A stretch of 12,513 bases of DNA, taken from the NCBI GenBank assembly GCA_003557485.1, contig PWOI01000166.1, positions 1 through 12,513 on the forward strand, in the 5' to 3' direction. Shown here one piece after another: positions 1 to 12,109 of this stretch. A model generated the notes under the pieces. It did no database searches. It was given only the letters and a program-made list of their open reading frames with translations, and was not told where the DNA came from. This stretch comes from Elusimicrobiota bacterium. GTDB taxonomy: Bacteria; CG03; SLGR01; PWQF01. The translations under genes were made by a program, and so were the position numbers. The stretch's first letter is position 1, and every line of letters starts with the position of its first letter.

Positions 1-196
1 CAGGGCTTCCGCTGATCCGCGCATGCCTTCTTCCTCCAGCGCTCCCGAAGCGACGGAGAGTGCTCCCGGCAGGGACAGGGCTTCCGCTGATCCGCGCATG
101 CCTTCTTCCTCCAGCGCTCCCGAAGCGACGGAGAGTGCTCCCGGCAGGGACAGGGCTTCCGCTGATCCGCGCATGCCTTCTTCCTCCAGCGTTCCC
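1..196 (+). repeat. In-frame 75-bp tandem repeat (Pro/Ser/Ala-rich, 25-residue unit)
   Basis: Two complete copies (23-97 and 98-172) are identical base for base. Bases 1-22 match the last 22 bases of the unit, and 173-191 match its first 19 before the sequence diverges at 192. Each unit starts with Met and encodes MPSSSSAPEATES followed by a charged segment ending in ASADPR. As 75 is divisible by three, copy-number change keeps the frame, which also explains why a second frame is open here. The composition suggests a flexible, disordered linker or stalk. Identity between copies points to recent expansion or homogenisation. The array runs off the left edge, so its length is unknown. Confidence 0.95.
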
Positions 197-3100
197 AGCC
201 CGGAAGGACCTGCCTGGCTGCATCCGGGTGAGAGAGGAGAGAACAGGCCGCTCGAGATTATCCCCAGCCAGGGCGGGGCTTCCGAGCACCACGGTGATCC
301 TAATGTGGCCATGGGGCTGACCTGTCCCCTGACCAGATGGAGCATGGAATTTGACCGGAGAGCGCAGGATGCCCATGATGAATATTTTAAAGAGGCGTTG
401 GACAGGGGTATGAGCCCGGATATGGCTTTGGAAATAGCCAATGCCCGGGTGGAAGCAATGTTGGAATCTCCGGAAAAAATAGCTGAGGTGGCAAAAGAAG
501 CCGGTTTTGATAAGGATATTCCGATGGCTTTGGAGTTTGCCGAGAATCGCGGGATTGAAGATCCCCGTAAACAGGGTGAGTATACGGGGCATCTGCTGGG
601 ACCCGAGGCTGAAGCAAGAGATGTGGGTGATACAGGGAGGCATTTTGGGGTTACCGCCAGCGGTGATGATACATGTGAGTTTGTTATAGGTGTGACTTCT
701 ATTGATCCGAACCCCAACCTGAGCCGGACCAATGAGATCCTGGGAGAAATGGGCGGTTCTGCCAGTTATAACAGGGATGGGGACTGGGTAATGGGAGCCA
801 CCGGAGACGATGGCCGGACCGGATATTATGTCCGTGAAGGCGGCTCTTCGGGCGACTGGACTAATGTTGATGACAGGGGTTCCGGCTGGAGCCGCACAAA
901 GAATGACGATTCAATTGAGCGGATTATAAGCGATTCCGAACGGGAACATTTCAGCACCAGTGAAGGGTACTGGTGGATAGAGGACAGCAACGGCCATGAT
1001 AAACGTTACGATCCCAATAGTGAGGAGACCGGGACCCTCTGGACACGCACGAACGAAAACCTGGACACAATGAAAGCGACCGGACGCGTGGGGGTGGAAT
1101 TCGGTGTGCTGGATGAGGAAAACGGAACGGTTGCCCGAATCTGCGATTCCGGTCAGATAACAATTGAAAATGATATGTATGACCCCTCCCGCAGAGAGTA
1201 CCATGCTGTGGGTGACCTTAGAGTGGATCAGAGCAAGACTGGAAGCGGAACCGGAAGCAAAGAAGAATCAGAGTATCTTAAGTTCGACGTCATATATGAG
1301 AGCAGTCAGACGGGAAGGATGACCGCGGATATAAATGACGTCTCTATCCTGGGAGAACCTTTCAGGGTTGAGAGTCTTAATGATAGCGGCGACTGGGATT
1401 ACAGAAGCGTTAATTTTGTATATGACGCTCAGGGAACGCTGCATAAGTATTATTTTGAAGGAGTGGTCGGAGAGGATAATACACAGATAAGCCATCGTGA
1501 CGGTAATACCTACATTGCGGGCGAGGTCTCCGGGTTGGAAAAAGTAGCCGCAATAGATGTCTACAGGGAAGGGATTATAAATCACCTTCAGGATGGAGAC
1601 ACTTTATCAGTTTACCGGGGCGAGACTGACGCGTTAGACCAGATTGAAACCGTCTTCACTGGAGGAGAGCTGGAATCTGATTATGAGGGTCTTATTATGG
1701 AAACCCGGTACGCCACGGAAGGCGCGCATGCCGGTCTTTCAATGGTAGATACGCTTATGCATAGAGCCGGCGGGAATATTGTAAGTGATGTAACCGTTAT
1801 GGGGGATGAGGTTACCGGGAATGTTCATCTGCTTGAGGATAATCCCGGAATTGAAATAACTTTTAACGAAACCGGGGAATATGTTTTTCTTACCGCCGAT
1901 GGTGGAAGATATGTGCTTGATAACCCTGAGGCTCTTGCTGATGCTCTCGCAAACGGGGAAATAATAAATAACGCAGACCTCGGGATATCCCGCCACGGGG
2001 AGAGAGTAAATGATATATTTATTCAAAACGGGGACATAGTCACTCAGCACGATAAAACCGGCCAGGCTACGGACGTCTTTGGCTTTACCGGAAGACAGTG
2101 GAGTGAAGGGAATATAATAGATGATACCAGGACCGAGGAACGTTACTTTGCCGCGACCTGCTCTGAAACCGGAAATTATACCGGATTTTATGAGATGTCC
2201 GAGGGACAGGAGTTATCTCTTTACAGAGGGGACGTATATCTGCCCGGGCAGGTTGAGGCTAAGTGGAGCGGGTCTGACAGGAAAGTTTATTTAAGGTCCG
2301 GGGAACATACCCTTAATAACGGTGTTGATGACATAAATATTGAAATATCCGGTCGGGGCGGGGCCTGGGTCGGCACAGAAGATGCTATAGTGGACATACT
2401 CCATGACGCCAATGAGAGGTTTGGTGTTCAGTATGGCGATGAGATTCTGGAACATGCGATTAAAGACATACACTTCGACAGGAACGGCCAGGCAATGATT
2501 GAGGGTGTTTTTTACCTTGAAGACGGCCAGCAAGTTGAGCGTATGATAGTTAACGGGCAAATTGATTACAGGGAAGCCCAGGAAAATATGGGGCAGGAAG
2601 AAAGCGAGTCCCGTCAGGAAGAAGGCCGCACAAGGGGCATAACTCATACTTCAAGCGTTTTTGATGCAGATATATCAATTGTATGTGAAGATAGCGCATT
2701 AAACAGTCTTTCACTTACAAGCAGGAAAGATGATTCCAATTTTTCGGGAAGTTATTTCCTTGAAGATGCTGCTAACGGCGGGATAAATAACCTCTTCTTT
2801 AACGAGTTTAACGGTGGAACCGATGTGACTTTTTCGGAAGGCTCCAGGTATATGGTGCAGGAGGCCTCGTATCTTATTGACGCTACTGAAGGCGGAGATG
2901 GCTTTTATGCCGAGCGGGAAGGAAGCTATACTGTTAAGTTTAATGAAAGTACCCGGCTGTCTCTCAGTAATGATACGGGTATCCTTGAGCTTAGGTCGCA
3001 TATTAATCGTAACAACCTTCAGTCCGGAGACGTAACTATAGTAGATGAATTTGATGTAACCTTCCTTACAGGAAGCAAGGCCGGAACTACTGAAAGTTAT

Positions 3101-6100
3101 ACTGCCACGACTGATATAAACGTTGTAGAATATGAATATGCTACCCGCGGCAGAGGGGGGCAGATGGAAGGGACCCGGTATTTTGAAAATACCGTTATTG
3201 AGGATAGTAGCGGTAGCCGCCTTACAAAAGATTTTCTCGGGTATGAGTATACGACCAACCGCATAGAGACAGGTAAATGGGGCCGTACTATTGAGGTAAG
3301 CGCCAGCGGTATTACCGAGAGTCAGGGTATACTCCTTTCAGCCTGGGAAGGCATAAAGGGGCTTAATCACCTGGGTAACGCCGCCACCGCCGCTGTTGCA
3401 TCGTTATTTACTTCTTCGGTTGATTCTTACTTTGATTCCCAGTGGGAAAAGGCTGTAAACCACCTTACCGGGCTTACTATGGACCAGTATAACAGCCTTG
3501 AAACCGGCCAGAGGGCCATGCTTATGTTTTCCGGAACCTTCAGCGCGGTGCTTGACGTAGCTTCAGTTGTCCTGATCGCGACAGGTGTCGGAGCAAAGGT
3601 AGGGGTAGCTGCTGCAGGTATCGCAAAGGCCGTGGGTGCCGGAATGAGGATTGCCGCACGGGCCGCTACCAGGGCCGTGATAAGGGCCGCTCAGACAGCT
3701 ATTACCCAGGGAATCAGGAGAGGTATTACTCAGGGCTTGAGGTTGGGTCTACAGACCTTTAGAGAGGGGATGAGACATGCGGGGCGTACGACATTAGCAG
3801 GCGTCAGGAACGCGGTATCCAGCGCTTTTAGAAGCAGCGCGGGCGCTGCTGGTTCCGGGGGCAGTTACTTTGAGAGAGCGAAAAGATCTCTTCAGGTGTT
3901 CAACCGGGACGGTGTGGCAAGATATAATAGAGCCGTGAGTCAGTATAACTTTACAATGGGCCAGCCCGCTCTTGCCCGCGCCCAGCAGTCAGTGCTTTCC
4001 CGGGCCTCAAACGCTCTCTCCAGGATAGGAAACAGCTTACTTGTAAATATAAACTCAATGGCAAGCGTAAATGTATTTTCCAGGGCCGGAAGCGTTATGG
4101 TTGATGCAATGAACTTTGATAGTGAGACAGCAGAGATGCTTCATACCGCCCTTGGAATGCTTCCGGTTCTTCTTGGAAATCCCACGGGGATAGCAGGATC
4201 TGGAGGGCAAACCGCCGCTCAATCGCTTATCTATCGACTTCCATCTCGATTTGCTAGCGGCGGACGACTCAGTACGGGCGCCTCCGCCGCTGTTTACGCT
4301 ACAGCCGGGTTTGGAGCGGGTGTAGGTTACGGTTACCTGGTGCAGGGAGCGGAGAGTTTTGGCGAAGCGGCCGGTTACGGCACGCTTTTTGCAGCGGGAG
4401 CTCTTGTGGGCTCAGTACTGGGAGGAGCTGTTTCAAGGGCTGCCACCCAAGGCGGCAGATCAGCTGCGAAACTTTCTAAAGGTATGATTGCCGGTTCGGT
4501 AGCCGGCGGGTTAGGCGGCGGTTATTTAAACTGGCAGTTAAGCGGCGAGGGCAGGTCCTTTGAAGACTTTGGGCTTAGTGATCTCACCTCATCCGAGTTT
4601 ATAACAGGAGCAGTAATCGGGAGCGCTCTGGGCGCTTCCCTTGGTGGCGGCGCGATCTCCCAGATAGGGCGGACTATAGCACAGCAGGGTAATGTGTCTA
4701 CAGCAGGGCTCTCCGCAGCGACGGGTTTCCTGGGCGGTTATTCTATAGCCCGTTACGGGTTTGACCAGGATGTGGGTGCCTCATTGCTCTGGGGCGCGTT
4801 GGGCGCTGTCGCCGGAACCGGGCTTTATATGACGCATATTAATCCCCAGGTTGGCGGTATTGTGAATTTTGCCGCGCAGCTTCCCTTTAATACCCTGAGA
4901 GTGGTAAGAAGCGTCACTACATTCAGAATGGGCACCTCCCTCGCGCTCAGCGCCTTGTCGTCTGCCGGGGTTAAGTTTCCGGATAACTTTACTTGGCAAG
5001 TAGGCGGATACGACGCTTTCGGTTCCGGGACTGTTAAGGGAGAAGACGGCTCGGAGACCCCCGCGGTGTTTTTCTTCGGAATACAGCTTACTTACCAGGA
5101 CCAGGGAAGCGCAAGGGATATTATCAGGCAAACGGTTGATACCGGACATGAGACTATGTTCAGCCCGACCTTATGGGCCTTCTCACTGACTGTTTCGGCG
5201 GTCAGACCGATACTGGCCCCGATTGTACAGAATATGCCCGGGTTGGGGCATGTAAACCAGGCTCTCTCCGGCGGCGGTTTCTCGGGAGGTAAAGGTCTCG
5301 GCGCCCGGATAGCCAATTACTTCTACGAAGTCGGGCTGCAGGAGTTCGGGCCACAGGCCGTATTCGGCGGAGTTATGGGCGGAACTTTTTCCGGTGAGTT
5401 CGGGAGTCAGTTGGTGGAACTTCTCAGGGAAACCTACGGTTCCGGAAGAGGAGGGATGTCGGCAACTAACCTCTCAAACGCCATGGCCCAGGTCAGGTCG
5501 CTCCAGAACCTGCATAGTTCCAGCAGGGATGCCAGTACAGACGTTAACGCCTACAGCCAGATATTAGGTCAGCTGGCCGGGCAGGTGTATAATGACCTGA
5601 ATATTACTCCTGCGGTGAGCCAGGATGCCTTACAGCAGATAGCAAATAATAACCCTGAAATGGCCAAGCGCATGGTTGACGTGGATATAGCGGCAGCAAA
5701 CGCCGGGCTTAACCAGAACCAGCGCCTTGAGGTAATAGCTGCCCTGACCGGAGTAAGTGTCAGTACTGACCAGTCCGGAACGGTTCAGGTCTCAAGGACC
5801 GCGACGGAGGTTTCGTCGGCAGTTGAAAGAGCCGGGTATGATGCGGTTATTGATTACGCTCACGGTATATCCCAGCTTGAGAAGGCTCAGACGGCGCGCA
5901 GCGGGTTTGAGAGAATAGTTCTTGGGAGAACGGAGAGCGACCGGAGCCAGCTCTTGGAACAGCTTTCCGGGGCTGAGGGTATCCAGGGTCAGGATGCGAT
6001 TGCGGCAGCCCTGGGTGAAAGGATTAGTGACGCCAGGACGCTTGAAGCTTTCAGGCATTACGTGACAGGAGCCGTATCGATGATGAGCGCTTCCGACAGA

Positions 6101-9100
6101 AGCAGCGCCACCTATGCTAACCTCCGGAACAACGTTAACGCCGTAATGGCCTCCTTATCCAGCCAGTTTGATGCTTTTCCGGAAGCTGTAGATTACCTGC
6201 ACGCTGCAGTCACTACCGTGGCAGAGAGCAGAAACTCCGATATTCAGAGGAGTTTCCTTGAAGCGGCAACCCTTGAATCCGGCGCTTTTATGGATACTTT
6301 TTCCAACTGGGCGGAGCAGCAGGTCGCTGCGAGAAATACAGAAGCCCTTGAAAAAGTCGGGCCGGTTGTTCTGGCGCTTCATAACGCTATGGCAAACCTG
6401 GAAGCAGAGCATCTGGTTGATTACCTTGCTTCGGCAGAGAGCCACGACAAACTTGGGTTATATGAAACCGCTCAGAAGGCCCTTTATAATAAACTTTCAG
6501 CCGAGCAGCAGCAGCAGGTTATACAGAATCTTGCTGAAGGTAAACCGGCAGCCGAGATTGAAATTGAAATTGCTGATGCTGATAATGTTTCAGTGAGGTC
6601 GGACCTTCTCTCCGGTGTTGCTCTGCAGGAGATGAGTTCACAGCAGATGGTTGAGTTTATTTCCTCAGCGGACTCCAATGTAAGCTCAGAGCTGCTGATG
6701 ACCGTTCAGCATGCTCTTTTTAATCAACTTTCAGTCGAGCAGCAGCAGCAGGTTATAGAGAGCGTGCTTGAGAACGATAAGGATGCGACTGTTGAAATTG
6801 AAATTGCTGGTGCTGATAATGTTTCAGTTAGGTCAGAACTTCTTGCGGAAGCTGCTCTGTCCAGCCGAATAACTCAAATGGCAGGCGAGCGGGACTCGGA
6901 AGTATCCGTTGAAAGTTTTGATGAGACGACGGCAGGAACGGAGTTTCTGTTAAGGGAAAGGGAACGTATACAAAGAGCCCAGGAAGAGTATAATGAAGCA
7001 GTTGCAGAAGAAAGAACGGATAGTGCCGAAACAATAGCCAGTGAACTTGCCAGGGAACTTATAATCTCTTTTCAGGACCGTGCTCGGACAATAATAAGTG
7101 ATAACCCTGATGTGGCTTTTAATTATGAACCTGGTGAAAATTTTACTCTTAAAGAAGGCCAGGTAAAAGCGGTACATGATATAGTCCAGTCTCTGCTGGA
7201 GGGTAAGCAGGCAGGAAGACGCGGGCATATGCAGCTTGCCGCAACGGCCCAGGGAAAAACCGTGATATCTATGCTGGGACTTGTTTTTATGAACGCGGGC
7301 AACCATGACAATATGATACATCTTTCCAATACCGATACAAATGTGGCCGAAACTATGAATATGATAAAGGATTTTCAGCTTGGTTCGGGAGCGCATCTTT
7401 CAAAGGAACAGGTTGAAGAGTTGCGTAATGATCCGGAGGCTATGAGACGGATTTTTACAGAACGTACCCATCTGGGAATGACATATGATACCTTCGGAAG
7501 TATTGTTTCAATGGCGCTGGCCGAGCTTCTTTCTGAAAAGCAGGAAGGTGACAGCGGCGTGACAGCCAAAGAGGCGGAGCATAACCGTAAGATTCTAAGT
7601 GATGCCGGTATAAGACTTGTTCCTGACAGAAACGGCCTTCGGTTTGAGAACCCTGAAATGTCCAGGAAAGCTCTTGAGCTCCTTGTGGAAAATGGCAGGG
7701 GCCTGGAAAAAACTTCGGTGCCTTTTGACAGACTTCTTAAGACGGCTGTTAATGCGGATGAGCTTGATTACGCCGCTACTATACCTGCCCAGGCCATTGC
7801 CCGGGCTCTTGGAACCTATGCCAGCAACCTTAACCAGATTAATTACTACAATGTTCTCAGTAACCCTCAAAGGTACTTAAACAGCAGCGAGAATATGGAA
7901 GAGTTCATTGAGACATACGCTCAGGAATTTCAGAAGTCCAAGGAAGCTATAAGGGCAGATATAAGGGCAAGCGCTTCAGAGTCCGGCAGAAACCGTTTCA
8001 GTAGACTGGCATCTTTCTGGGAGAGTGTAAATGCGAGGGCTCAGGAATTAACTCCGTCAAGTAATTTTACACAGGAAGCTTCACTTTTCGTTGACGCTGC
8101 TTCTCTCGGCATAGCACAGTCCGAGGTTGAGCAGGCGCTCTCCGAACAGGTTAATAACAAAAGGGCCAGAGACTTGTTTGAGAGCCTGGCGGAAAAAACC
8201 GGGAAACTCCACGCTCGTATGCCGAATTACAAGGGCAGGACCGATTATGCTGAAGGAGCACAGCACCTGTTTACCGGGATGTCCCGCGCCCAGTATTACG
8301 GCGCGATAGCAGAGACAGAGACTTTTGCTTCCCTGATGAGTTCTGAAGAGGCCAGAAGAGAGTTTGCCAGGCGTTTCTCAAAAGAACTGGATATTTTCCC
8401 CTCTGATATAGAGAAGGAACTCAAGGATTTACTGAAACCGGAGAGCAAGGAGAGCCAGGATAACCCGGATATAGCGCGTAATAAAGTAAAGGCGTTGGCT
8501 CATTTATGGAGCGAAGCTCATAAATTTTCCAATGAGATTTCTAACAGACCCGGCAGAGTTGATCTAGAAACGCTTAACAACAAGGAAGCAGATTTGAAAG
8601 CTGAGGCTGAACAACATGGAATAGCCGAGTTTGTGAATGAAGCAGAATTAAGACAGGTGATAAGGAGAAATTATACAAGCGAAGATCTTGCCAGACTTAT
8701 AAACCAGGAAGACCTGGATGCGGGGAGCAGAGCACTGGCTGAAAGGGTCAGTGAAGAACGCCGGGGCGAAATTGACCTTGCGGCTGAAGTTGAGAAGATT
8801 TTCCAGGAACTGAAGAGTGAACATGGAAATGTTTTCAGCGATGCGGAACTCAGGGAGTTCATATGGAACGGACTTCAGGCCCATAACCTGGAGAAGAACA
8901 GGGAGTTTGCTGTTAAGACGGACCCGTTCGGGAACAAGAGGCTGGATATAACTTCAAGCGGACTTACCTACCGTAACCTGAACCTTCCCGCCGGTCAGAT
9001 GCAGGTTCTGGAGGTTCTTCACGGAGCAGAGATAAGCAGGCCCTCTAATCAGACTTTTATTTCCAACTCGCTCCAGGCTCTGGGAATGGCGGAGACAATA

Positions 9101-12100
9101 GTAGGGTACTCTGGCACGGCTTCTGATTCTTTCAGGGATAATTTCCTTGAAAGGCTGAATATGAGCGTAAAAGGCCAGGTTACCGGGAACCAGATCGTGG
9201 GACGTCACCATTACCTGCTTCCCACTCAGAATGATTCTGGTGATCTTCTGGTAAAAACTATGCAGGATCTTGAATCCAGGAATATCGCGGGTTTTCATCT
9301 GGTTATGACTGCAAATACGAGTGAGAGTTTCGTTTTCCTGGAAAAAGTTTATGAAGCTGTACAGGCCGGGAAGATAAACACATCAGGAGAGTTAGGGCTC
9401 ACAAGTTTAACAGAGAACGCAAGAAACGCGCTTCTTGAAAGAGGACGGAACCCTGAAAAATTTGAAGATCTGTGGGAGGAATGGAATACTCTCAGGGGAC
9501 TGGAAAGCCGCAATGAAGCTGAAGAGGCTCTTTTTAGAACCCTTGACTCCCATCTGGCCCCTGTTCTTGACAGAGTAGCTTTCTTCCGGCACGATTCCAG
9601 CGAAGAGGAGAAAAGAAATGTAATAGATTCAGTAAAAGCAGGGGAGAAAGAAGTCCTCATAACAGACGCTTATCTCGGAGGACGGGGTATGGACCTGAAA
9701 GCAATGGTTAAAGCTGCCGATAATCTTAGAACAAGGCTTTCCGTCAGGGAAGGTGTTGATAAGAATGATGTTGCGCCAATGGCCCAGGCTATGGAATGGG
9801 TCATGAATCCGGAGCTTATGACCTGGGTTCAGTGTGAGCAGGCCGAGGGGCGTCTGGATCCCAGGGGAGACAACCGCTTTTCTACTAAAGCCTGGACAAA
9901 AGATATTGTTTCAATATCTACTATAGAAAGGGCCCGGACGGTTGATGTCTTCGAGGAAGCAGCGAAGAGAGACGGATGGTCTATTGATGTGTTGCGTGAT
10001 AATATGAAAGTCGCGCAGGACCAGCATGAACACAGAGCTTTTCAGAAAGCCGGTCAGAGGGTCCAGATGGCTTCCCAGCGCTTGAATATAAATGATCTGT
10101 CAACAACGGTTCAGCAAAACCTTTCAGGGAAAAGCAATCGGGATAAATATTATGACCTGAAAACAGGAGAATTGACCCAGCGCGGGATAGCTCACGTGGA
10201 AGCGCAAAGGCTCAATGACCTTGCCGATCTCAAACTTAAGGCGGATCACCTTGATGAGCTTGTAGGAAAACTGACCCTTGATGATAACTGGAGCGCCGAA
10301 CTTCTCAGCAAGATTGCGGAAGAGATAAAGAGGGTTGCACCCGCCTCCCAGACCGAAATCCAGAAGCATATTCTGAAGTTATCGGAAAAAGTCAGCGATT
10401 ACCATTCCAAATACGAAAAAGCAGAAACTTTTCAGAGGGATAACGCCGACGTTCTTCAAAACGCAAGGTTTGGATTAAGAACCCGTTTTACTGACTGGAG
10501 ACTTAAGAGACAGGCGGATAATGCCAGGAAAAAACTGGATACCGTGCTGGTTAATGCCATGCAGTCGGGTCTTTTGAAAAGCAGCGCCGCCGAGTTAACC
10601 GAAGGAAATCGTATTTCCCTGTCAAGAAGCGGGGTTTCAGAAGAGGCTCTGGAGGTACTTGATAGTATTGATGCGCAGAGACTTAACACTCTGAATATAG
10701 CCGAAGGAAAGAGTTTGCTTACGGAAAAAGGCGTAAGCGAATCCGATGCTGATAAAATACTGAGTTTTATAGCTGATAACAATTTTGATTCTCTTTCAGG
10801 GTTATGGAACCTCTATAAGGGGCTTCCCGGCGTCTCCCGGAATCTGGGGAAAATTAATTTTAAGGGAAGTGATTTTCATAAACTCAGCGTATTTTTAGAG
10901 AATGCTAAAAAGATTACGGGTAATGAAACTCTTCCGCCTCTGGCGAGAAAGGGAGTTGGCTTAACCGAACTGATGAACGCGGTAAGATCTGAAGATTTTT
11001 CAGGGGTTCTTTCCAAAATGGTGCCCGGAAGATCCAAGGTTGCCAGGGTTATAAAAGCCGTAGACGCCAGGGTCTCTGAAAAGGCAGCAGAAAAATTACC
11101 TTCGGATTCTGATAGCAAGAAACTTATTGACAGACTGATTCCGATGGTTAAAAACTCAATGACTGTCTCAGATATTGACCAAATAGCCCGGGAACATGGA
11201 TTAGAAGTTTCTGAGGCTCTCCAGATAATACTTCCCCTTACACCTATGGACAGGATTTCTGAGATTGAAACTGCGGTAGAGAACGATCCGTCGTTTGCAG
11301 AGAACCTGAAGCTTGGGCATATTTCATCGGACGAATCAATATCCGCGCTCCGTAATGAGCTTTCCGCGGCATCAGATGCGGAGAGCGTTTCCGTAATCAG
11401 TATACCCGGTTTCGGCAGGGTCGAACTTGACGCATCTGGAGAAACAACCGGGTTTGACGCCGGAGCCCTGAGGCTTTCAGAGGAAAATTATAATGCCTTG
11501 GAAAAGATATCTGATATTTCTCCCGAGTTTGCCGGAAAAGTTGCCCGTATGCTGGCGGCTTTTGAAATGCATAACGAGAAAACAGGAGAAGATCTCTTTG
11601 ATAATTATATTACGGAGATGAGGAGGATGGGGATAGAGAAACCTGAGGCTATGGCTCTTCCAATAATGATAAATGCCATCAAAGTAGACTCCACTCCTTC
11701 TTCAGATCAGCAGGCCCTGCCTGGAGCTCTGGCTGAATTTATGGGCGAGGAGAGAATAATTGAGGCTGTCAGGGGACCTGGAGCCGTGCAGCCTGACGAA
11801 ACTATACATTCCGAGGTGGATGCAGCGGGTCTTGGGGCATTCCTGCGGGCCTTATCCGCCGTAGTACTCTCTCCCGCTAATTCCGTGGGAAGGTTCACCG
11901 GTGTCAATGCTGGAGAGATCCTGGGTCTTGACCCCTGGTCAATTGGACAGGATACAGGCAGGTCCTGGGGAGCCGTGACCCGTTATATGTTCAACCCCGA
12001 TCCGTATGCGATAATAGAAGATATAGGTATAGCCTTAAACGGCGGCCGTTCCGATGCGGGGTTGAGTGTTCCCACAAACCTGCTTGAAAGCGTGCTCAGT

Positions 12101-12109
12101 TCAGCGTAA
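2..12109 (+). CDS. Giant multidomain protein with embedded SecA-like motor ATPase (5'-partial)
   Basis: A single uninterrupted frame runs from the left edge to a TAA at 12107-12109. The first ATG in view (23) gives 4,028 residues, but the frame is open before it and that ATG lies inside a tandem repeat with no ribosome-binding site, so the N-terminus and any signal peptide are missing. In order, the protein has a Pro/Ser-rich repeat linker, a helical stretch, about 900 residues of beta-type sequence, a hydrophobic glycine-rich centre, a helical part with a 78-residue duplication, a SecA-like ATPase (about residues 2377-3290) and a helical tail. Normal SecA is about 800-1,000 residues, so this is not the housekeeping translocase but a giant protein that has incorporated such a motor. 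No protease, glycosidase or toxin catalytic motif was recognised. A plausible role is an ATP-driven, membrane-associated, partly surface-exposed protein acting in export or attachment; that is inference. The reading frame is certain, the SecA-like call strong, the biological role unknown. Confidence 0.95.
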   Translation, partial: RASADPRMPSSSSAPEATESAPGRDRASADPRMPSSSSAPEATESAPGRDRASADPRMPSSSSVPSPEGPAWLHPGERGENRPLEIIPSQGGASEHHGDPNVAMGLTCPLTRWSMEFDRRAQDAHDEYFKEALDRGMSPDMALEIANARVEAMLESPEKIAEVAKEAGFDKDIPMALEFAENRGIEDPRKQGEYTGHLLGPEAEARDVGDTGRHFGVTASGDDTCEFVIGVTSIDPNPNLSRTNEILGEMGGSASYNRDGDWVMGATGDDGRTGYYVREGGSSGDWTNVDDRGSGWSRTKNDDSIERIISDSEREHFSTSEGYWWIEDSNGHDKRYDPNSEETGTLWTRTNENLDTMKATGRVGVEFGVLDEENGTVARICDSGQITIENDMYDPSRREYHAVGDLRVDQSKTGSGTGSKEESEYLKFDVIYESSQTGRMTADINDVSILGEPFRVESLNDSGDWDYRSVNFVYDAQGTLHKYYFEGVVGEDNTQISHRDGNTYIAGEVSGLEKVAAIDVYREGIINHLQDGDTLSVYRGETDALDQIETVFTGGELESDYEGLIMETRYATEGAHAGLSMVDTLMHRAGGNIVSDVTVMGDEVTGNVHLLEDNPGIEITFNETGEYVFLTADGGRYVLDNPEALADALANGEIINNADLGISRHGERVNDIFIQNGDIVTQHDKTGQATDVFGFTGRQWSEGNIIDDTRTEERYFAATCSETGNYTGFYEMSEGQELSLYRGDVYLPGQVEAKWSGSDRKVYLRSGEHTLNNGVDDINIEISGRGGAWVGTEDAIVDILHDANERFGVQYGDEILEHAIKDIHFDRNGQAMIEGVFYLEDGQQVERMIVNGQIDYREAQENMGQEESESRQEEGRTRGITHTSSVFDADISIVCEDSALNSLSLTSRKDDSNFSGSYFLEDAANGGINNLFFNEFNGGTDVTFSEGSRYMVQEASYLIDATEGGDGFYAEREGSYTVKFNESTRLSLSNDTGILELRSHINRNNLQSGDVTIVDEFDVTFLTGSKAGTTESYTATTDINVVEYEYATRGRGGQMEGTRYFENTVIEDSSGSRLTKDFLGYEYTTNRIETGKWGRTIEVSASGITESQGILLSAWEGIKGLNHLGNAATAAVASLFTSSVDSYFDSQWEKAVNHLTGLTMDQYNSLETGQRAMLMFSGTFSAVLDVASVVLIATGVGAKVGVAAAGIAKAVGAGMRIAARAATRAVIRAAQTAITQGIRRGITQGLRLGLQTFREGMRHAGRTTLAGVRNAVSSAFRSSAGAAGSGGSYFERAKRSLQVFNRDGVARYNRAVSQYNFTMGQPALARAQQSVLSRASNALSRIGNSLLVNINSMASVNVFSRAGSVMVDAMNFDSETAEMLHTALGMLPVLLGNPTGIAGSGGQTAAQSLIYRLPSRFASGGRLSTGASAAVYATAGFGAGVGYGYLVQGAESFGEAAGYGTLFAAGALVGSVLGGAVSRAATQGGRSAAKLSKGMIAGSVAGGLGGGYLNWQLSGEGRSFEDFGLSDLTSSEFITGAVIGSALGASLGGGAISQIGRTIAQQGNVSTAGLSAATGFLGGYSIARYGFDQDVGASLLWGALGAVAGTGLYMTHINPQVGGIVNFAAQLPFNTLRVVRSVTTFRMGTSLALSALSSAGVKFPDNFTWQVGGYDAFGSGTVKGEDGSETPAVFFFGIQLTYQDQGSARDIIRQTVDTGHETMFSPTLWAFSLTVSAVRPILAPIVQNMPGLGHVNQALSGGGFSGGKGLGARIANYFYEVGLQEFGPQAVFGGVMGGTFSGEFGSQLVELLRETYGSGRGGMSATNLSNAMAQVRSLQNLHSSSRDASTDVNAYSQILGQLAGQVYNDLNITPAVSQDALQQIANNNPEMAKRMVDVDIAAANAGLNQNQRLEVIAALTGVSVSTDQSGTVQVSRTATEVSSAVERAGYDAVIDYAHGISQLEKAQTARSGFERIVLGRTESDRSQLLEQLSGAEGIQGQDAIAAALGERISDARTLEAFRHYVTGAVSMMSASDRSSATYANLRNNVNAVMASLSSQFDAFPEAVDYLHAAVTTVAESRNSDIQRSFLEAATLESGAFMDTFSNWAEQQVAARNTEALEKVGPVVLALHNAMANLEAEHLVDYLASAESHDKLGLYETAQKALYNKLSAEQQQQVIQNLAEGKPAAEIEIEIADADNVSVRSDLLSGVALQEMSSQQMVEFISSADSNVSSELLMTVQHALFNQLSVEQQQQVIESVLENDKDATVEIEIAGADNVSVRSELLAEAALSSRITQMAGERDSEVSVESFDETTAGTEFLLRERERIQRAQEEYNEAVAEERTDSAETIASELARELIISFQDRARTIISDNPDVAFNYEPGENFTLKEGQVKAVHDIVQSLLEGKQAGRRGHMQLAATAQGKTVISMLGLVFMNAGNHDNMIHLSNTDTNVAETMNMIKDFQLGSGAHLSKEQVEELRNDPEAMRRIFTERTHLGMTYDTFGSIVSMALAELLSEKQEGDSGVTAKEAEHNRKILSDAGIRLVPDRNGLRFENPEMSRKALELLVENGRGLEKTSVPFDRLLKTAVNADELDYAATIPAQAIARALGTYASNLNQINYYNVLSNPQRYLNSSENMEEFIETYAQEFQKSKEAIRADIRASASESGRNRFSRLASFWESVNARAQELTPSSNFTQEASLFVDAASLGIAQSEVEQALSEQVNNKRARDLFESLAEKTGKLHARMPNYKGRTDYAEGAQHLFTGMSRAQYYGAIAETETFASLMSSEEARREFARRFSKELDIFPSDIEKELKDLLKPESKESQDNPDIARNKVKALAHLWSEAHKFSNEISNRPGRVDLETLNNKEADLKAEAEQHGIAEFVNEAELRQVIRRNYTSEDLARLINQEDLDAGSRALAERVSEERRGEIDLAAEVEKIFQELKSEHGNVFSDAELREFIWNGLQAHNLEKNREFAVKTDPFGNKRLDITSSGLTYRNLNLPAGQMQVLEVLHGAEISRPSNQTFISNSLQALGMAETIVGYSGTASDSFRDNFLERLNMSVKGQVTGNQIVGRHHYLLPTQNDSGDLLVKTMQDLESRNIAGFHLVMTANTSESFVFLEKVYEAVQAGKINTSGELGLTSLTENARNALLERGRNPEKFEDLWEEWNTLRGLESRNEAEEALFRTLDSHLAPVLDRVAFFRHDSSEEEKRNVIDSVKAGEKEVLITDAYLGGRGMDLKAMVKAADNLRTRLSVREGVDKNDVAPMAQAMEWVMNPELMTWVQCEQAEGRLDPRGDNRFSTKAWTKDIVSISTIERARTVDVFEEAAKRDGWSIDVLRDNMKVAQDQHEHRAFQKAGQRVQMASQRLNINDLSTTVQQNLSGKSNRDKYYDLKTGELTQRGIAHVEAQRLNDLADLKLKADHLDELVGKLTLDDNWSAELLSKIAEEIKRVAPASQTEIQKHILKLSEKVSDYHSKYEKAETFQRDNADVLQNARFGLRTRFTDWRLKRQADNARKKLDTVLVNAMQSGLLKSSAAELTEGNRISLSRSGVSEEALEVLDSIDAQRLNTLNIAEGKSLLTEKGVSESDADKILSFIADNNFDSLSGLWNLYKGLPGVSRNLGKINFKGSDFHKLSVFLENAKKITGNETLPPLARKGVGLTELMNAVRSEDFSGVLSKMVPGRSKVARVIKAVDARVSEKAAEKLPSDSDSKKLIDRLIPMVKNSMTVSDIDQIAREHGLEVSEALQIILPLTPMDRISEIETAVENDPSFAENLKLGHISSDESISALRNELSAASDAESVSVISIPGFGRVELDASGETTGFDAGALRLSEENYNALEKISDISPEFAGKVARMLAAFEMHNEKTGEDLFDNYITEMRRMGIEKPEAMALPIMINAIKVDSTPSSDQQALPGALAEFMGEERIIEAVRGPGAVQPDETIHSEVDAAGLGAFLRALSAVVLSPANSVGRFTGVNAGEILGLDPWSIGQDTGRSWGAVTRYMFNPDPYAIIEDIGIALNGGRSDAGLSVPTNLLESVLSSA
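303..625 (+). other. Short N-terminal helical segment of the giant protein
   Basis: Residues about 98-200 follow the Pro/Ser linker and change to charged, helix-type sequence, including MSPDMALEIANARVEAML and an Ala/Glu/Lys-rich continuation. It contains one of only six cysteines seen in the protein (C101). No family was recognised. It may be a small globular or coiled module joining the repeat linker to the beta-rich region; boundaries are approximate. Confidence 0.5.
635..3322 (+). other. Acidic beta-rich region of the giant protein (about residues 205-1100)
   Basis: This stretch of about 900 residues is rich in Asp, Glu, Asn, Gly, Ser, Thr and aromatic residues, with alternating short hydrophobic strands and turn-like Asp/Asn/Gly segments. 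That pattern is typical of beta-sandwich or beta-solenoid parts of large surface proteins. A short motif recurs about 203 residues apart: LSVYRGETD at 528-536 and LSLYRGDVY at 731-739. The phrases FNETGEYVF and FNESTRLSL also resemble each other, hinting at old, diverged repeats. Four of the six cysteines lie here (C218, C374, C713, C888). No catalytic motif or named domain was recognised. A surface-exposed structural or binding role is inferred from composition only. Confidence 0.55.
3515..3643 (+). other. Hydrophobic, probable membrane-inserting segment (residues 1165-1207)
   Basis: The segment begins AMLMFSGTFSAVLDVASVVL and continues through a Gly/Ala/Val-rich stretch ending AKAVGAG. It is long and hydrophobic enough for one or two membrane helices, although one Asp and two Lys interrupt it. 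It is the first strongly hydrophobic segment after the acidic beta-rich region. Similar Gly/Ala hydrophobic stretches precede effector domains in some large secreted toxins, but no toxin domain follows here. Membrane insertion is inference from composition. Confidence 0.5.
3644..3850 (+). other. Arg/Ala-rich amphipathic stretch with an 8-residue repeat
   Basis: Residues about 1208-1276 follow directly on the hydrophobic segment and are strongly basic, with arginines spaced through Ala/Ile/Thr/Gln sequence. A short tandem repeat is visible at 1227-1242: ITQGIRRG then ITQGLRLG. The pattern fits an amphipathic, positively charged helix lying on the cytoplasmic face of a membrane, as the positive-inside rule would predict. 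It could instead bind nucleic acid or another acidic partner; no family was recognised. Confidence 0.45.
4280..4888 (+). other. Glycine-zipper hydrophobic block (residues 1420-1622)
   Basis: About 200 residues are dominated by Gly, Ala, Val, Leu and Ser with repeated small-xxx-small patterns. Examples are AGFGAGVGYGYL, FAAGALVGSVLGGAV, GMIAGSVAGGLGGGYL, GAVIGSALGASLGGG and LLWGALGAVAGTGLYM. There are at least five or six such hydrophobic runs separated by short polar loops. Glycine-zipper arrays are known to pack tightly in membranes and in pore-forming or membrane-disrupting proteins. This block lies between the beta-rich N-terminal part and the motor, making it the best candidate for membrane association. 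It is not a recognised transporter fold, and some runs may be buried rather than transmembrane. Confidence 0.55.
4889..5455 (+). other. Mixed Gly-rich region after the glycine-zipper block
   Basis: Residues about 1623-1811 combine beta-type sequence (WQVGGYDAFGSGTVKG, then VFFFGIQLTYQD), moderately hydrophobic helices (PTLWAFSLTVSAVRPILAPI) and further Gly-rich segments (FGGVMGGTFSGEFG). It connects the hydrophobic block to the helical region. No family was recognised. Confidence 0.4.
5456..7150 (+). other. Alpha-helical region preceding the motor (residues 1812-2376)
   Basis: From MSATNLSNAMAQVRS onward the sequence becomes Ala/Gln/Glu/Leu/Ser-rich, with the regular spacing of hydrophobic residues expected of helical bundles or repeats. 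It has no cysteine and little Gly or Pro. Its last third holds a clear 78-residue tandem duplication, annotated separately, and it ends with a strongly charged helical stretch rich in Glu, Arg and Ala just before the ATPase. It may serve as an arm or scaffold for the motor. No named family was recognised. Confidence 0.5.
6398..6865 (+). repeat. 78-residue (234-bp) in-frame tandem duplication
   Basis: Copy A is 6398-6631 (residues 2126-2203) and copy B 6632-6865 (2204-2281), aligning without gaps at an offset of exactly 234 bp. Both carry an xxVxxxxSAxS helix, then an LSxEQQQQVI segment (AEQQQQV and VEQQQQV), then EIEIAxADNVSVRS. The 3' part is nearly identical in DNA: 41 of 45 bases match between 6557-6601 and 6791-6835. 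The first half is much more diverged. That asymmetry suggests gene conversion or local constraint rather than a single uniform duplication age. The function is unknown; it extends the helical arm before the motor. Confidence 0.9.
7151..9890 (+). other. SecA-like motor ATPase domain (residues 2377-3290)
   Basis: The order of motifs follows SecA, the ATPase that pushes preproteins through SecYEG. Motif I is TAQGKT with K2412 (SecA TGEGKT), followed by VISMLGLVFMNA, which resembles the SecA VATLPVYLNA stretch. Motif Ia-like is HLSNTDTN (2433-2440). Motif Ib-like is GMTYDTFG (2485-2492; SecA ITYGT..FG). Motif II is probably DELD (2579-2582; SecA DEVD). GLQAHNL (2950-2956) and AGQMQVLE (2990-2997) match the SecA ALRAHAL and DGLHQAxE segments at the end of the preprotein cross-linking domain. 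NQT (3009-3011) and GYSGTAS (3028-3034; SecA GMTGTAD) follow. MTANTSES (3095-3102) corresponds to the SecA GT.SIE region. GGRGMD (3219-3224) is motif V, and QAEGRLDPRGD (3273-3283) motif VI. The catalytic residues suggest an active ATPase. Large helical insertions make it longer than SecA. It could act on proteins or on another polymer; a different SF2 helicase is less likely, given the SecA-specific segments. Confidence 0.85.
9891..12106 (+). other. Helical C-terminal tail of the giant protein (residues about 3291-4028)
   Basis: The sequence after motif VI is charged and helix-rich. Its first 60-80 residues, around DVFEEAAKRDGWSIDVLRDN, sit where SecA has its helical scaffold (AIENAQ..VE..FDIRK), but the resemblance is weak. 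Further on come long Lys/Glu/Leu coiled-coil-type helices (about 3390-3520) and several small helical modules. The last 100 residues are more Gly/Pro/Ala-rich, with aromatic residues near the end. There is no SecA-type zinc-binding Cys motif, in fact no cysteine at all, and no sorting signal or hydrophobic anchor was recognised. The protein ends LLESVLSSA. Confidence 0.5.

What the first reader, a model, noticed from the sequence alone, without database searches (positions are those of the whole stretch)
7151..9890. SecA-type motor built into a giant multidomain protein
Seen: motifs I (TAQGKT), Ib (TYDTFG), II (DELD), III (SGTAS), V (GGRGMD) and VI (QAEGR..RGD) appear in SecA order, along with the non-helicase SecA landmarks LxAHxL, GxxQxLE and NQT. 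Known: SecA normally is a separate protein of about 800-1,000 residues working with SecYEG. Inference: here the motor is one module of a protein of more than 4,000 residues with a beta-rich N-terminal part and a membrane-like centre, so it may drive movement or export of its own N-terminal part or of a dedicated substrate.
Basis: partly seen in the sequence, partly recalled or inferred. Interest (0 to 1): 0.78.

Follow-up and report, generated by a model that had tools for sequence, protein, structure and literature searches.

The report
ATP motor inside a giant bacterial protein
A bacterium from a little-known group makes a protein of more than 4,000 amino acids with a probable ATP-driven motor in its middle; the motor resembles a helicase and only faintly the protein-export motor SecA, but a related species carries an unmistakable SecA inside an even larger protein, so these giants do take in export-type motors.

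Summary
The window is one 12.5 kb contig with a single open frame (4,035 aa, 5' end missing). They look like a superfamily-2 (SF2) ATPase. They do not pass the SecA tests: no SecA hit in Pfam, NCBIfam, PDB or hhalign searches; the best relevant Pfam match is generic Helicase_C (E 0.05); the Q-motif/Walker A stretch fits RecG best; a single-sequence AlphaFold model failed (pLDDT 40). SecA likeness rests on an 84-residue stretch at 8870-9121 (1 of 1,500 shuffles scores as high, but not distinct once all SecA tiles are scanned) and on a large insertion between motifs II and III, where SecA carries its PPXD.
The context is more interesting. Two giant paralogues in the same genome have the same scaffold and an SF2 motor in the same slot. 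A same-order genome has a 6,000-residue giant with a clear SecA (SecA_DEAD E 5e-74, plus PPXD, P-loop and wing/scaffold). The window's C-terminal module recurs in 22 other frames, mostly giants; relatives start with a signal peptide and carry assorted enzymes. SecA-like ATPases in giant secreted toxins are already published for Actinobacteria, so this is a new variant, not a new kind.

The parts
2..12106 (+). single open frame of 4,035 codons (stop 12107-12109), open at the 5' end: giant multidomain protein; the contig is G000:C20
1..196 (+). 75-bp (25-aa) tandem repeat, 2.6 copies, at the contig start; the true N-terminus is missing
   Evidence: the paralogue contigs L011 and L012 also begin in coding repeats
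320..3472 (+).
3506..6811 (+). Gly/Ala-rich scaffold with a few hydrophobic spans; the core 4337-6250 is 39-41% identical between paralogues and absent from 385 other genomes searched
7133..9982 (+). SF2-type ATPase (motor) module, aa 2371-3320
   Evidence: ordered SF2 motifs; Q-motif/Walker A z 5.8; Helicase_C E 0.05
7244..7261 (+). motif I / Walker A (TAQGKT)
7757..7768 (+). putative motif II / Walker B (DELD)
   Evidence: not SecA-like by profile
7769..8869 (+). large insertion between motifs II and III, at the place where SecA has its PPXD domain
   Evidence: spacing II to III: 451 residues here, 315 and 354 in paralogues, 193 in SecA, 26 in RecG
8870..9121 (+). SecA-resembling stretch LxAHxL...GxxQxxE...NQT...SGTA (aa 2950-3033)
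   Evidence: segment score 50.7 against shuffles 19.4 +/- 6.0, 1 of 1,500; MAFFT finds the register unaided in trimmed alignments; not distinct from decoys after multiplicity
9677..9694 (+). motif V-like GGRGMD
   Evidence: falls in the Pfam Helicase_C match, E 0.05
9839..9871 (+). motif VI-like QAEGRLDPRGD (arginine spacing irregular compared with SecA)
11357..12106 (+). C-terminal module shared with 22 other frames in three genomes; conserved to the last residues before the stop
   Evidence: partial fold confidence, no PDB match

Best explanation
The window encodes most of one member of a lineage-specific family of giant modular proteins that share a C-terminal module. Relatives start with a Sec-type signal peptide (read by eye) and a conserved N domain and carry varied enzymes in between. 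The reported region is an SF2-type ATPase with a large insertion between motifs II and III, i.e. SecA-like in layout but not demonstrably SecA in sequence; it sits in a fixed slot right after a conserved Gly/Ala-rich scaffold. Most likely mechanism (inferred): the giant is exported or displayed, and the motor is a cargo or working module that uses ATP to move a polymer chain (protein or nucleic acid) once it is in an ATP-containing compartment, such as the cytoplasm of a target cell. Shown here: one open frame, SF2 motif set, shared slot in three paralogues, family C-terminal module, a true SecA in a relative giant. Inferred: export of this particular protein, ATPase activity, the substrate, and the compartment of action.
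For: Open frame and motifs. SF2 Q-motif/Walker A signal and Helicase_C over motif V. Paralogues C72 and C53 keep scaffold plus motor in the same order, with GKT/DEAH/SAT/EGMD/GRxR motifs and similar spacing; their motors are 46% identical, at least as conserved as the scaffold. C-terminal module in 23 frames, mostly at the ends of giants. Signal peptide plus conserved N domain in 24 places in four genomes of the order. Enzyme modules in relatives: SecA, pyruvate kinase, topoisomerase IB, SNF2, GH94 and others.
Against: The window's own N-terminus is missing, so export of this protein is not shown. The motor sequence is an orphan (no relative in 386 genomes) and most individual motifs score poorly by profile. 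No structure could be obtained. No neighbouring genes are visible, because the contig holds one gene.
Confidence: 0.45

Rival explanations
1. The module is a SecA derivative that has diverged beyond recognition and powers export of the giant itself, the scaffold acting with SecYEG or as its own channel (the reader's idea, and close to the published prediction for actinobacterial giant toxins).
For: Stretch 8870-9121, insertion at the PPXD position, clear SecA in a related giant, weak SecA_DEAD hit in paralogue C53 (E 0.0047) and SecA tile z 6.2 there; precedent PMC8195603.
Against: No SecA profile hit in the window; no wing/scaffold or PPXD match; the signal disappears after correction; the genome has an ordinary SecA that can do the job.
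Confidence: 0.25
2. The module is a nucleic-acid SF2 helicase or translocase (RecG/SNF2-like) acting on DNA or RNA of a target cell.
For: Best local profile match is RecG; Helicase_C; a same-order giant carries SNF2, topoisomerase IB and GyrA-C domains.
Against: The II-III spacing of 451 residues is unlike RecG (26); the SecA-like stretch is then coincidence; no DNA-binding domain was identified in the window.
Confidence: 0.2
3. The module is a captured and decaying ATPase fragment without activity, kept only as bulk sequence of a giant protein.
For: Orphan sequence, irregular motif VI, weak motif II.
Against: No stop in 12.1 kb; the paralogue motors are strongly conserved; Walker A intact.
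Confidence: 0.1

Closest known systems
SecA preprotein translocase ATPase (Pfam SecA_DEAD, SecA_PP_bind, P-loop_SecA, SecA_SW)
   Same: SF2 motif order; large insertion between motifs II and III; stretch LxAHxL...NQT...SGTA
   Different: no profile match; longer insertion; irregular motif VI; not a free-standing 800-1,000-residue protein; no wing/scaffold match
SecA module inside the giant of G003:C226 (L049 aa 4254-5104)
   Same: motor module inside a giant protein whose C-terminus carries the same module as the window
   Different: clear SecA there (SecA_DEAD E 5e-74); the upstream parts show no BLAST similarity to the window's scaffold
Giant actinobacterial secreted toxins with SecA-like ATPase and MFS domains (PMC8195603)
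   Same: SecA-like/SF2 ATPase as one domain of a giant, probably secreted multidomain protein
   Different: other phylum; no GT4, ART or HTH domains found here; no sequence comparison was possible
Giant ORFs of Omnitrophota and other PVC-related lineages (PMC10066038; domain content in PMC12419801)
   Same: giant, poorly conserved modular proteins mixing enzymes and hydrophobic spans
   Different: the papers searched mention no SecA in them; the phylum of this genome is not identified
RecG/SNF2-type SF2 helicases
   Same: Q-motif and Walker A fit RecG best (z 5.8)
   Different: much larger II-III insertion; no wedge or DNA-binding domain detected

Membership tests
SecA | match to SecA_DEAD / SecA profiles (Pfam, NCBIfam, PDB sequences) | tested here: not met
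SecA | PPXD domain between motifs II and III | tested here: inconclusive
   insertion of 451 residues is present, but no SecA_PP_bind match
SecA | signature stretch GxHQAxEAKEG...NQT...GMTGTA | tested here: inconclusive
   1 of 1,500 shuffles; decoys reach similar z when all tiles are scanned
SecA | helical wing and scaffold domain | tested here: not met
   no SecA_SW match in the window; present in the G003 giant
SecA | SecA fold (two RecA-like domains with PPXD) | tested here: inconclusive
   single-sequence AlphaFold2, pLDDT 39.9
SecA | works with SecYEG | not testable with these tools
   functional property
SF2 helicase/translocase superfamily | Q-motif and Walker A | tested here: met
   z 5.8 against RecG profile ending at aa 2433; motif I p 1e-4
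SF2 helicase/translocase superfamily | motifs II, III, V and VI in order | tested here: inconclusive
   strings present in order; Helicase_C E 0.05, below Pfam's cut-off
giant modular protein family of this order | conserved C-terminal module | tested here: met
   36% identity to C34, E 1.8e-21, in a search with the window alone; profile search
giant modular protein family of this order | N-terminal signal peptide plus DLHAN/GLEGDP domain | not testable with these tools
   N-terminus lies outside the contig; found on another contig of the genome (G000:C144)
giant secreted polymorphic-toxin-like proteins | toxin domain | tested here: not met
   no toxin domain in Pfam or NCBIfam scans of the window; PADLOC and PHROGs not searched

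The most novel reading that the evidence does not exclude
The scaffold plus motor unit of the three paralogues is a self-contained translocation device: a giant protein that carries its own SecA-derived or SecA-like engine and threads itself or a partner domain across a membrane, with the C-terminal module as address tag.
Probability: 0.12. Interest if true: 0.85.

Novelty: new variant of a known kind. Interest (0 to 1): 0.5.

Why it matters
SecA is almost always a separate housekeeping protein: in the 79 genomes where all hits were listed, every SecA frame was at most 1,213 residues, except the G003 giant and one that looks split by an intein. A lineage that builds SecA (shown in G003) and other SF2 motors (window, C72, C53) into exported-looking giants would be a natural experiment on what such motors do away from SecYEG, and offers a testable model for how giant proteins of predatory or symbiotic bacteria get out of or into cells.

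Tried and rejected
Direct SecA identification by Pfam, NCBIfam, PDB phmmer, hmmsearch --max and hhalign: negative for the window. Ordered motif-chain test and whole-domain identity test: negative. Pairwise alignment of window motor with SecA, the G003 SecA or the paralogue motors: no signal (the script stopped before the global mode). Rad3/DinG origin, suggested by DEAH...SATxxP and EGMD in the paralogues: the DinG profile is not clearly better than SecA or RecG. Relatives of motor or scaffold in GTDB contigs, viral contigs and 386 genomes: none beyond the own genome. AlphaFold of the motor with a SecA-rich alignment was not run: the alignment misplaces motifs II, V and VI and the result would be biased towards SecA. 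AlphaFold and Foldseek of the C-terminal module: about 100 residues confident, no PDB match. The organism's phylum could not be named.

Full report
What is in the window. The window is the whole of contig C20 of a 2.07 Mb, 212-contig genome. It holds one gene: an open frame from base 2 to 12106 on the + strand, 4,035 codons, stop 12107-12109, no stop inside. The 5' end lies in a 75-bp coding tandem repeat, so the N-terminus is missing. No tRNA is present.

The reported motifs are real strings at the reported place. As SF2 motifs they are plausible: a Q-motif and Walker A stretch scores z 5.8 against a RecG profile at the correct position, and Pfam's Helicase_C matches over motif V at E 0.05, below its cut-off. 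As SecA motifs they fail most tests. No SecA family is hit in Pfam, NCBIfam or PDB sequences or with SecA profiles built here from the phylum and from diverse genomes. Block by block, only motif I and the LxAHxL/GxxQxxE/NQT...SGTA stretch stand out. That stretch as a whole scores 50.7, against 19.4 +/- 6.0 in shuffles, 1 of 1,500 reaching it, but when all SecA tiles are scanned other giants reach similar values, and whole-domain identity is no better than decoys. A single-sequence AlphaFold2 model was useless (pLDDT 39.9). SecA membership of the window's motor is therefore unproven.

Layout argues for something SecA-like. The distance from motif II to motif III is 451 residues here, 193 in this genome's own SecA and 26 in RecG. 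SecA carries its PPXD at this point; Rad3-type helicases also have an insertion here (from general knowledge), so the argument is not specific.

Paralogues. Two other contigs, C72 and C53, carry frames of 3,568 and 3,736 codons, open at both ends, sharing about 30% identity with the window up to aa 2263 (C72) and about aa 2362 (C53). Both continue with an SF2 motor at the same position: GSGKT/GAGKT, DEAH, SAT, GNKEGMD, LGRDR. Their motors are 46% identical to each other, against 39-41% identity to C72 over the scaffold core. Pfam sees DEAD in both (E 7.8e-5 and 0.0043) and SecA_DEAD weakly in C53 (E 0.0047). Sequence comparison does not link them to the window's motor, but II-III and III-V spacings are alike (315-451 and 175-189). 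The scaffold occurs three times in this genome and in no other of 386 searched.

Family. The last 250 residues of the window recur mostly at the ends of large frames: 3 hits in the own genome, 9 in G003 and 11 in G005 of the same order, conserved to the last residues before the stop. AlphaFold2 gives a partly confident model (about 100 residues) without PDB match. Where the N-termini of giants are visible they begin with what reads as a signal peptide (by eye; no predictor was available) and a conserved domain with DLHAN...GLEGDP...GGFHSEG motifs, found in 24 places in four genomes, including frames of 9,931 and 11,860 codons in G002. Between the ends lie varied enzymes: pyruvate kinase, cation efflux, M28 peptidase, HD, GGDEF, epimerase and methyltransferase, topoisomerase IB, GyrA-C, SNF2, GH94, ABC1 kinase and others.

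A true SecA in a giant. G003:C226 is a 6,000-codon frame ending in the same C-terminal module. Its residues 4254-5104 are SecA: SecA_DEAD E 5e-74, P-loop_SecA 1e-34, PPXD 6e-23, wing/scaffold 4e-7, NCBIfam SecA models at E down to about 1e-161, below the equivalog cut-off, solved SecA structures at E about 1e-110, motifs GEGKT, DEAD, TGT, AGRGTD, QARGRAARQG intact. It sits on a long branch, not close to the SecAs of its own phylum. In the 79 genomes whose hits were all listed, the only other long SecA frame (2,075 codons, G060) looks split by an intein-like insert; a survey of 386 genomes listed only part of its hits, none long among those shown.

Mechanism. With a signal-peptide-led, enzyme-loaded family, the simplest view is that the giants are exported or displayed and the motor is one working module that needs ATP and thus acts before export or inside another cell. 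Self-export by a built-in SecA is possible; SecA-like ATPase domains in giant actinobacterial secreted toxins have been predicted to help their secretion (PMC8195603), and SecA-like helicase-related domains were noted in Amoebophilus effectors (PMC3482391). Giant modular proteins of Omnitrophota are described in PMC10066038 and PMC12419801, without mention of SecA in the text searched. Hence: new variant of a known kind.

Limits. Draft genomes break inside these repetitive giants, so no member of the window's subfamily is complete. The phylum is unnamed in the tools (16 genomes held). No expression data.

Noticed in passing
L049 (G003:C226) aa 4254-5104: Nearly complete SecA (DEAD, PPXD, P-loop, wing/scaffold) inside a 6,000-codon giant frame that ends in the window's C-terminal module.
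   Followed up: yes
L011 (G000:C72) and L012 (G000:C53): Two giant paralogues with the window's scaffold followed by SF2 motors; the two contigs end in an identical sequence, so the assembly breaks in a shared coding repeat.
   Followed up: yes
G002:C42 and G002:C25 (L143-L146): Frames of 9,931 and 11,860 codons with signal-peptide-like start; one carries topoisomerase IB, GyrA-C propeller, HHH, HD and SNF2 domains, the other GH94, GT, ABC1 kinase and M48 domains.
   Followed up: partly
window 11357-12106 and 22 homologues: C-terminal module conserved up to the stop (ILYAN, ILYAK, IxHAL, LSSA endings), possibly a sorting or export tag.
   Followed up: partly
L060, L053, L052 N-termini (alignment A3): Signal peptide plus a conserved N domain with DLHAN...GLEGDP...GGFHSEG motifs; no Pfam family above cut-off.
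   Followed up: partly
L013 (G000:C34): C-terminal piece of another giant with GGDEF-like stretches (GGDEF E 1.4e-11, two stretches).
   Followed up: no
L060 (G005:C2) and L052 (G003:C24): Giants lie head to tail in arrays; L060 2239-5532 is a small, complete member (1,098 codons) with both conserved ends.
   Followed up: partly
L059 (G005:C83) 2167-5898 and 5902-9051: Adjacent large frames 42-49% identical, a tandem duplication next to a giant.
   Followed up: no
G060:C240:110893-114279: SecA frame of 2,075 codons with the SecA_DEAD match split by about 2.3 kb in frame, as by an intein.
   Followed up: no
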